Origin: Bradyrhizobium guangdongense
GTDB taxonomy: Bacteria; Pseudomonadota; Alphaproteobacteria; Rhizobiales; Xanthobacteraceae
Assembly (NCBI RefSeq): GCF_004114975.1
Contig: NZ_CP030051.1
Coordinates: forward strand, 7,392,046 to 7,456,045
DNA: 64,000 nt
Direction of reading: 5' to 3'
The notes below the pieces were generated by a model that ran no database searches, was not told where the DNA came from, and was given only the letters and a program-made list of their open reading frames with translations. This document shows positions 40,587-41,486 of this stretch, piece after piece. Both the position numbers and the translations under genes were made by a program. Position 1 is the stretch's first letter. Each line of letters opens with the position of its first letter.

Positions 40587-40985
40587 CCTGCCCCCAACCG
40601 GTGCAATCGACCCTGTCCCGCCAGTCAGAGCATACTCCAAATTCGCCCGTAAGTTGTATTGAAGTGGTGAAGTTCAGCGGCGAGAAGGCAGCGCCCGGAT
40701 GGTATCTAGCGGCTCACCGCGCTGGGCCACGCGAACGCTCGCGCCGGCGCTGGCGGATTGCAGCGGATCAAATGGCACGAGGGCTCTGCCGGTTCTTCGC
40801 TGTCCGGCGTCCGTCTCAACGATCAGAACCGATCCACGCAAACGCGCCGAGCGCCGGACTCAACACTCCTTCGTACGCAGAAAAGCCGGCTCTGTGCCCC
40901 CCATCACGGCAGCGCGGCCGACATAACCGCATTCTCCTCGGATCGCGCGCGGAATGGTCCGCCCGATATACAAAAGGAGACTGCC
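40587..40985. other. Upstream region of the double-glycine peptide and DUF4272 genes
   Basis: This divergent 400-base gap should hold promoters for both flanking genes. The frame of the peptide is open back to 40758, but the extra part has no start with a ribosome site and looks non-coding. I find no clear -35/-10 pair. The strong AAAAGGAGA ribosome site of the peptide lies at 40972-40980. Confidence 0.4.
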
Positions 40986-41126
40986 ATGCAGAACATGGCT
41001 CGCGAATTGACGGAGATGGAGCTCGAGACGATTTCCGGCGGAAGCTTCTGGGGCAGCATTGCCGGGTTCTTCCGCGGCCTGTTCGGCGGCCCCGGCGACC
41101 TGCGCCGTCCGCTCGACCGTCCCTGA
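40986..41126 (+). CDS. Small peptide with double-glycine (bacteriocin-type) leader
   Basis: This predicted 46-residue peptide begins MQNMARELTEMELETISGG. The ELTEMELETISGG part fits the leader that C39-peptidase ABC exporters cut after GG. The remaining 27 residues (SFWGSIAGFFRGLFGG, then PGDLRRPLDRP) have an aromatic, glycine-rich, amphipathic half and a basic Pro-rich tail. The ribosome site AAAAGGAGA ends 5 bases before the ATG, much better than usual here. No exporter, modification or immunity gene is adjacent, so it is either an orphan bacteriocin-like precursor exported by a remote system or a signalling peptide. It is followed by a strong hairpin. Confidence 0.72.
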   Translation: MQNMARELTEMELETISGGSFWGSIAGFFRGLFGGPGDLRRPLDRP

Positions 41127-41155
41127 TCTCAACTCATTTCTCGACTGCAGCATCC

Positions 41156-41183
41156 GGACGAGGGTCGCACGCGGCCCTCGTCC
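41156..41183 (+). terminator. Hairpin after the double-glycine peptide gene
   Basis: GGACGAGGG (41156-41164) pairs with CCCTCGTCC (41175-41183), and the inner CGC-AC-GCG can pair too. It lies 29 bases after the peptide stop and 10 bases before the end of the convergent gene, so it could end both transcripts. There is no T-run. Confidence 0.55.
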
Positions 41184-41192
41184 TCGCCGAAT

Positions 41193-41486
41193 TCAGTGCC
41201 TGATATGCTCGAACACGACGATCACGCCGGTCGGCTCGGGCTCGTGTGCCATCAGGCGCGTCAGATCTGCATCGCTCCAGTCCGCGAGGCTGACGACTTC
41301 GCCGGTCTCGCGGTCCGCGCCGGCCGACGGGGTCGGCTCCAGGACCTTCAGTCCCATCTCGTCGACGAAGAACGTGTGCTCGCCGAACATGCTGTTGAGC
41401 TGCGGCATGGCGGGATGCTCGTCGGGCAGCACCTGCGCGCCGAGCTGGTTGACGGTCTGCTTCACCTGTTCGGATGTGAGCTTCAT
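41193..41486 (-). CDS. Hypothetical 97-residue acidic protein
   Basis: The protein begins MKLTSEQVKQTVNQLGAQVLPDEHPAMPQLNSMFG and continues with EHTFFVDEMGLKVLEP and an acidic C-half. I recognise no catalytic motif and no signal peptide. A GGAG ribosome site lies 6 bases before the ATG at 41486, and codon use is typical, so it is probably real. It converges with the double-glycine peptide gene. Confidence 0.68.
   Translation of the reverse strand: MKLTSEQVKQTVNQLGAQVLPDEHPAMPQLNSMFGEHTFFVDEMGLKVLEPTPSAGADRETGEVVSLADWSDADLTRLMAHEPEPTGVIVVFEHIRH

What the first reader, a model, noticed from the sequence alone, without database searches (positions are those of the whole stretch)
40986..41126. 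Orphan double-glycine leader peptide, a candidate bacteriocin-like or signalling precursor
Seen: a 46-codon frame with a near-ideal ribosome site (AAAAGGAGA), a leader ending ETISGG, a 27-residue aromatic/glycine-rich core and a downstream hairpin. Known: GG leaders of this type are cut by C39-peptidase ABC exporters. Inference: a secreted peptide that relies on a remote exporter. No immunity or modification gene is adjacent, but DUF4272 and DUF1963 proteins of unknown role lie directly upstream.
Basis: partly seen in the sequence, partly recalled or inferred. Interest (0 to 1): 0.72.

Follow-up and report, generated by a model that had tools for sequence, protein, structure and literature searches.

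The report
Secreted micropeptide regulon in Bradyrhizobium
A tiny gene in a soil bacterium encodes a peptide tagged for cutting and export, and it belongs to a scattered family of such genes that share one unusual on-switch and probably one distant export machine.

Summary
In detail: window 40986-41126 (+) encodes a 46-aa double-glycine (GG) precursor with a strong ribosome site and a 3' hairpin, conserved in Bradyrhizobium under purifying selection. It is not a lone orphan. About 85 bases upstream is a CRP-type dyad, then a short hairpin whose stem covaries between genes. A covariance model of this 5' module, trained without this genome's sequences, ranks four GG-leader genes first in the 8.4-Mb genome: one beside its only NHLM exporter, the window gene, and two dispersed genes with other cores; ranks 1-2 have orthologues in the training set. 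In relatives 40 of 51 places read precede GG-leader genes, seven of them training places. Precursors co-occur with the exporter: 27 of 30 genomes against 43 of 235. In the three exporterless genomes one precursor is broken, one evolves loosely, one looks intact. Best reading: a co-regulated, dispersed set of secreted micropeptides, probably class II microcin-like, sharing one NHLM exporter. The DUF neighbours look incidental. Export, regulation and activity are untested.

The parts
40893..40908 (+). CRP-type dyad TGTGCCCCCCATCACG, starting at -93 from the start codon
   Evidence: 8 of 10 consensus positions; in the 24 homologous upstreams aligned the best site scores 7 to 10, at -91 to -96 in 16 and at -112 to -127 in 8 (the exporter-flanking MLN second genes were left out of that set). 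On its own a score of 8 is not significant in the window
40930..40935 (+). -10-like element CATTCT, about 32 bases from the dyad centre (inferred)
   Evidence: a similar element recurs at this spacing in aligned upstreams; the generic sigma-70 scan finds no promoter
40942..40967 (+). 5' hairpin; inner arms GCGGA 40949-40953 and TCCGC 40958-40962, loop ATGG
   Evidence: covariation in homologous upstreams; fold, which alone is no better than shuffles (z -0.36)
40972..40980 (+). ribosome-binding site AAAAGGAGA
   Evidence: a site is kept in the type-A relatives read except L038
40986..41042 (+). double-glycine leader MQNMARELTEMELETISGG
   Evidence: ComC and bacteriocin-leader models
41043..41123 (+). 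27-residue core, net charge +2, glycines spaced G4-G8-G12-G16
   Evidence: this glycine series is not kept in all relatives
41124..41126 (+). stop codon
41156..41183 (+). 3' hairpin between the peptide gene and the convergent 97-aa gene (41193-41486, -); probably a shared terminator, without U-run
   Evidence: z -3.75, 0 of 200 shuffles fold as well; a like inverted repeat is visible, unfolded, in relatives

Best explanation
The gene encodes a small precursor. Its 19-residue leader is recognised and cut after Gly-Gly by the C39 domain of the NHLM exporter (ABC1/ABC2/HlyD) at G000:C1 near 5.74 Mb, and the 27-residue core is secreted. It is one of at least six intact precursors at five loci of this genome: types E, A (the window), D and B, and a two-peptide operon. 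They share a promoter type (a CRP-family activator site about 40 bases before the presumed start of transcription) and a short hairpin near the 5' end of the mRNA. Shown by computation: the gene family, the shared upstream architecture, the covarying stem, the exporter's presence and its co-occurrence with precursors. Inferred: binding by a CRP-type protein, the start of transcription, export, the cleavage site, and an antagonistic class II microcin-like role for the core (about one in two; intercellular or plant-directed signal about one in four).
For: (1) Model R1, trained on 15 upstreams with none from this genome, ranks four GG-leader genes 1 to 4 (E 2.5e-21, 4.4e-15, 3.2e-4, 0.0027); rank 1 lies beside the exporter (L033). 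(2) CRP score of 8 or more in 52 of 82 distinct GG-ORF upstreams against 7 of 594 other ORF upstreams. (3) Hairpin: 6 of 6 pairs have changes on both sides, 47 such cells, 0 of 500 shuffles; the 15-sequence MAFFT alignment gives 4 of 6 pairs, 15 cells, 0 of 500. (4) 40 of 51 R1 places read in relatives precede GG-leader genes (read by eye); control 12 of 208 SD-ATG sites. (5) Exporter subunits TIGR03796/97/94 over cut-offs, with ECGAAC and HWNFNH motifs; the only other C39-like match lacks the Cys. (6) In L109-L111 a two-peptide GG operon, its first gene behind an R1 element, stands on both sides of the NHLM exporter. (7) Exporter (E<=1e-150) in 27 of 30 strong precursor genomes against 43 of 235 others, p 6.7e-15; 14 of 17 for type-A-like genomes. 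(8) pN well below pS in pairs without L039.
Against: No expression, export or activity data. Species are related, so p-values overstate independence. R1's training set holds orthologues of the rank 1 and rank 2 genes from other genomes; only ranks 3 and 4 (types D, B) are kinds it had not seen, and their E-values are modest. G215 has an apparently intact precursor and no NHLM exporter. The window's CRP-like site is weak (8 of 10) and its hairpin alone does not beat shuffles. R1 places also precede other genes: 11 of 51, one at 54 bits, and 16 of 28, four of those being one small signal-peptide protein family. The whole-genome search did not list two own-genome places that the locus search scored at 24.9 bits. 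Two of eight cores tested are not amphipathic at the N-terminus. No immunity gene was recognised.
Confidence: 0.75

Rival explanations
1. The secreted core is a signal (between bacteria, or from bacterium to legume), not an antimicrobial.
For: No immunity gene recognised nearby; ComC and pheromone leader models score weakly; CRP-type control would suit a nutritional or symbiotic cue.
Against: Core sequences differ widely between genes sharing one leader and promoter type, which fits an arsenal better than one signal-receptor pair; 6 of 8 cores tested have an N-terminal hydrophobic moment reached by at most 109 of 2000 shuffles.
Confidence: 0.25
2. The upstream dyad is a DNA operator for a repressor rather than an RNA hairpin.
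For: It is a perfect dyad (GCGGA-N4-TCCGC) close to the presumed promoter, and many genes keep exactly this sequence.
Against: In other genes of the set the arms change jointly to unrelated sequences (GGCGGA/TCCGCC, GAGGG/CCCTC, TTGCGGGG/CCCGCAG), expected for a stem and not for one sequence-specific protein.
Confidence: 0.2
3. The 46-codon frame is not translated; conservation comes from a small RNA.
For: Short frame; hairpins at both ends.
Against: Excess of synonymous change, paralogues with the same leader type and other cores, length-variable homologues in frame.
Confidence: 0.04
4. The leader is a RiPP leader and the core is modified by an enzyme encoded elsewhere.
For: NHLM exporters are linked to thiazole/oxazole and lanthionine systems (PMC2887384, passages).
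Against: This core has no Cys and two Ser; no modification enzyme among six neighbouring frames of the window gene by domain search. Exporter flanks in L033 and L109 were only listed as open frames, so this is a weak test.
Confidence: 0.08

Closest known systems
NHLM (NHLP/Nif11) bacteriocin export system, TIGR03794/03796/03797 (Haft 2010, PMC2887384, passages read)
   Same: Same three exporter components over cut-off; GG cleavage motif; one genome can hold many precursors
   Different: Leaders here are short (about 16-28 residues, ComC type); the paper's passages describe long leaders, nearly 90 residues in one family. No modification enzyme recognised near the window gene; shared CRP-type site and covarying 5' hairpin
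Class II bacteriocins / class II microcins with double-glycine leaders (Pfam ComC, Bacteriocin_IIc; TIGR01847)
   Same: Leader motif, small amphipathic or glycine-rich core, C39 peptidase exporter
   Different: No immunity gene or exporter recognised beside the window gene; precursors dispersed; below the cut-offs of the bacteriocin models
Prochlorosins of marine cyanobacteria (recalled)
   Same: Many dispersed precursors with a common leader and variable cores
   Different: A LanM enzyme was not searched for genome-wide here; the leader matched no long-leader model
Br-REP1 and Br-REP2 palindromes of Bradyrhizobium (PMC5082802, passages)
   Same: Small GC-rich hairpins in Bradyrhizobium intergenic DNA
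   Different: Other sequences, at least 50 to about 200 sites per genome, described in 3' regions; the element here is 5', 3 exact 14-mer copies in this genome

Membership tests
Double-glycine leader precursor (class II bacteriocin / ComC type) | Leader with hydrophobic spacing ending in GG, short core, start with ribosome site | tested here: met
   ComC 21.1 bits over 20.4; bacteriocin models below cut-off
Double-glycine leader precursor (class II bacteriocin / ComC type) | Cleavage and export by a C39 exporter | not testable with these tools
   Candidate exporter present and co-occurring
Class II bacteriocin / microcin | Antimicrobial activity and cognate immunity gene | not testable with these tools
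   No immunity candidate among six neighbouring frames by domain search; activity untested
NHLM system | ABC1 with C39, ABC2 and HlyD-type subunits | tested here: met
   All three over cut-off at L033
NHLM system | Precursor with NHLP or Nif11 type long leader | tested here: not met
   Window peptide matches neither NHLP nor Nif11 model at E<=1; its leader is 19 residues. Filed as a likely substrate, not as an NHLP/N11P precursor. NHLP genes elsewhere in the genome were not searched for
Known RNA family (Rfam 15) | Match of the 5' hairpin region to a curated family | tested here: not met
   None at E<=1 in window 40600-41300; in five loci one sub-threshold ctRNA match
CRP/FNR regulon | TGTGA-N6-TCACA type site at fixed distance | tested here: met
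   For the set: 52 of 82 against 7 of 594. The window's own site is 8 of 10
CRP/FNR regulon | Binding of a named regulator | not testable with these tools
   32 HTH_Crp_2 matches in the genome, 21 read; one bears RESVNR, like the recalled E. coli CRP helix RETVGR

The most novel reading that the evidence does not exclude
A new structured 5' mRNA element, coupled to a CRP-type promoter, marks and controls a whole dispersed arsenal of secreted micropeptides (11 GG-leader genes behind the 14 R1 places of one Bradyrhizobium genome, G012) that share one NHLM exporter. The promoter-hairpin module, not the coding sequence, is the conserved unit that new cores are placed under.
Probability: 0.5. Interest if true: 0.86.

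Novelty: new variant of a known kind. Interest (0 to 1): 0.75.

Why it matters
Orphan GG peptides in Gram-negative bacteria are hard to tell from noise. Here one regulatory module finds them genome-wide without knowing the peptide, links them to an exporter, and predicts that a major soil and nodule genus secretes a co-regulated peptide cocktail. It makes the function of NHLM exporters that handle short-leader peptides directly testable, and offers a search handle for new antimicrobial or signal peptides.

Tried and rejected
DUF4272/DUF1963 as partners: rejected, no blastn match in the stretches of five relatives. REP-type repeat: rejected, 3 exact 14-mer copies in the genome, and the third (L047) precedes no GG gene. 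The 14-mer alone as a marker: rejected. It occurs in 63 of 195 genomes, and 4 of 32 loci read precede a GG gene; the longer architecture is needed. RNAalifold on the MAFFT alignment of 25 upstreams did not find the hairpin, I think because loops were misaligned; a 15-row subset aligned without gaps in the hairpin did show it. That choice of subset, and the alignment being fitted to the model, favour the stem; slid controls are. The strong-match limit E<=1e-10 for co-occurrence was chosen after seeing the list; at E<=0.05 it is 52 of 60 against 18 of 205. Exporter operon under its own R1 element: an R1 match 0.8 kb upstream of HlyD in L033 is followed only by a 14-codon frame; possible relic, undecided. 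HlyB-type exporter of L034 as the processing enzyme: unlikely, no catalytic Cys. Rfam: no family. Literature: (listings and abstract starts only) and passages of PMC2887384 and PMC5082802 gave no report of this regulon; most subscription papers are not held. No structure prediction was run.

Full report
WHAT IS THERE. The frame 40986-41126 is a 46-aa GG-leader precursor with AAAAGGAGA before it and a 12-bp hairpin after it. A single-sequence search of 195 genus genomes gave 13 matches at E<=1e-3 in 11 genomes, G000 included. A protein database search gave 8 homologues of 8 candidates. Named relatives are Bradyrhizobium (14 of 16 loci; the other two are MAGs). Among 8 orthologues (28 pairs, one identical), the 20 other pairs without L039 have pS 0.09-0.27 and pN 0.01-0.06; the 7 pairs with L039 (genome G156) have pN 0.10-0.15 and pS 0.15-0.25.

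NEIGHBOURHOOD. Five relatives share a block that starts about 55-100 bases before the gene (at the start codon in L038) and continues through the convergent 97-aa gene and a glycosylase-like gene; blastn finds no match to the DUF genes there. The gene stands alone.

THE SHARED 5' MODULE. Aligning 24 chosen upstream regions showed a CRP-type dyad starting at -91 to -127 (scores 7 to 10 of 10) and, at about -38, a dyad GGCGGA-ATGG-TCCGCC or a different pair of arms. The 'MLN' type-B peptides, left out of that set, lack the dyad at -38. They are second genes: an R1 element lies before a first GG peptide in front of them in the L109, L110, L111, L112 and L116 places read. Among 82 distinct GG-ORF upstreams, 52 have a CRP score of 8 or more, against 7 of 594 control ORFs. 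The 30 low ones include scan false positives, second or later genes of tandem arrays and wrongly set starts. On 15 sequences, 4 of 6 stem pairs show changes on both sides, 15 cells, 0 of 500 shuffles and at most 5 cells in slid controls. On 42 distinct R1 matches it is 6 of 6 pairs, 47 cells, 0 of 500 (slid at most 11). Folding energy of the region is lower than in control upstreams (mean -11.2 against -8.4 kcal/mol, 50 against 594), but the window's own hairpin alone is not exceptional.

TEST IN THE OWN GENOME. R1 was built from 15 upstreams of other genomes, among them orthologues of the window gene and of the exporter-side gene. In the window's genome it gave 30 places at E<=10; I read 14. 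Ranks 1-4 are GG-leader genes: the exporter-side gene, the window gene, type D and type B; the last two are kinds absent from the training set. Rank 5 (E 0.007) and the other nine read are not GG genes. A direct search of fetched loci also found the two-peptide operon of L112 and an element near the exporter, both 24.9 bits, which the genome search had not listed.

RELATIVES. In the family sample 24 of 248 genomes, 11 of 47 genera, have R1 matches at E<=1e-3, 45 places. I read 28 of them: 12 precede a GG (or GA) leader, 11 of the 15 with 30 bits or more and 1 of the 13 below. The script flagged 11; by eye two flags are false and three leaders were missed, one of them (L260) in an uncertain frame; one place (L255) is a training place. 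Those 12 lie in three genera (g1, g11, g20). Six of the 45 were not read. In 40 relatives there were 43 places. Read together with 8 more places of G236, the script flagged 39 of 51; by eye one flag is false (L333) and two leaders were missed (L323, L337), so 40 of 51. Seven are training places, leaving 33 of 44, and three are the own-genome places above. G012 has 11 GG genes behind its 14 places; G012 and G236 share near-identical genes, so counts are not independent. Chance: 12 of 208 SD-ATG sites of the window pass the same test, 1 of 208 a stricter one.

EXPORTER. PF03412 has two matches in the genome. One belongs to an NHLM ABC1 with ABC2 and HlyD, all over cut-off, with Cys, His and Asp motifs; the other is HlyB-type without the Cys. 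In L109, L110 and L111 copies of the two-peptide operon stand on both sides of the exporter. Over 265 genus genomes, TIGR03796 matches at E<=1e-150 in 70 (67 over cut-off). It is present in 27 of 30 with strong precursor matches against 43 of 235 others; at the looser limit 52 of 60 against 18 of 205. Phylogeny was not corrected for. The three strong exceptions are G116 (precursor lost ribosome site and start), G156 (relaxed) and G215 (looks intact). Of their C39-like matches I read 2 of 2, 2 of 4 and 2 of 4: none has the catalytic Cys motif.

HOW IT PROBABLY WORKS. A CRP-family activator binds about 40 bases before the start of transcription, a class II layout (recalled). The mRNA begins near the hairpin, is translated from a strong site and ends at the 3' hairpin. 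The leader docks on the NHLM C39 domain, is cut after GG, and the core leaves through the HlyD conduit. All of this is inference. The first 16 residues of the window core are moderately amphipathic (70 of 2000 shuffles reach its moment) with a G4-G8-G12-G16 series, like class II two-peptide bacteriocins (recalled). Membrane-active antagonism is my first guess, signalling second.

STATUS. Known parts, new arrangement. I found no description in the searches named under Tried and rejected.

Noticed in passing
L302, L268, L276, L262, L273 (genomes G006, G239, G110, G308, G402): R1 matches before a small signal-peptide-like protein with the motif MCTGDAFRLCS or close to it (ACTPDAFRLCS); a second, non-GG set that may share the regulator.
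   Followed up: no
L175-L177 (exporter flanks of G002, G106, G104): Tandem blocks of near-identical GG peptides (FFDLSNLSNNIVAQ..) with a CRP-type site before the first copy of a block; in L178 (G253) the related copies each have a site.
   Followed up: partly
L041, L045 downstream of the type-A-like peptide: A second GG-leader frame follows (intact in L045, interrupted in L041), giving a two-peptide layout in some species.
   Followed up: partly
L109, L110, L111: The NHLM exporter is bracketed by two outward-facing copies of the same two-peptide operon about 8 kb apart.
   Followed up: partly
L300 (G008:C1:5523342-5523436): The strongest R1 match without a GG gene (54 bits) lies about 2 kb from the NHLM exporter of G008; not examined for a broken precursor.
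   Followed up: no
L034:7629-14001: A glycine-rich frame of over 2000 aa, open at the end of the fetched stretch, beside a HlyB-type exporter.
   Followed up: no
window 41193-41486 (-): Convergent 97-aa frame with no Pfam or NCBIfam match, inside the block conserved beside the peptide gene.
   Followed up: no
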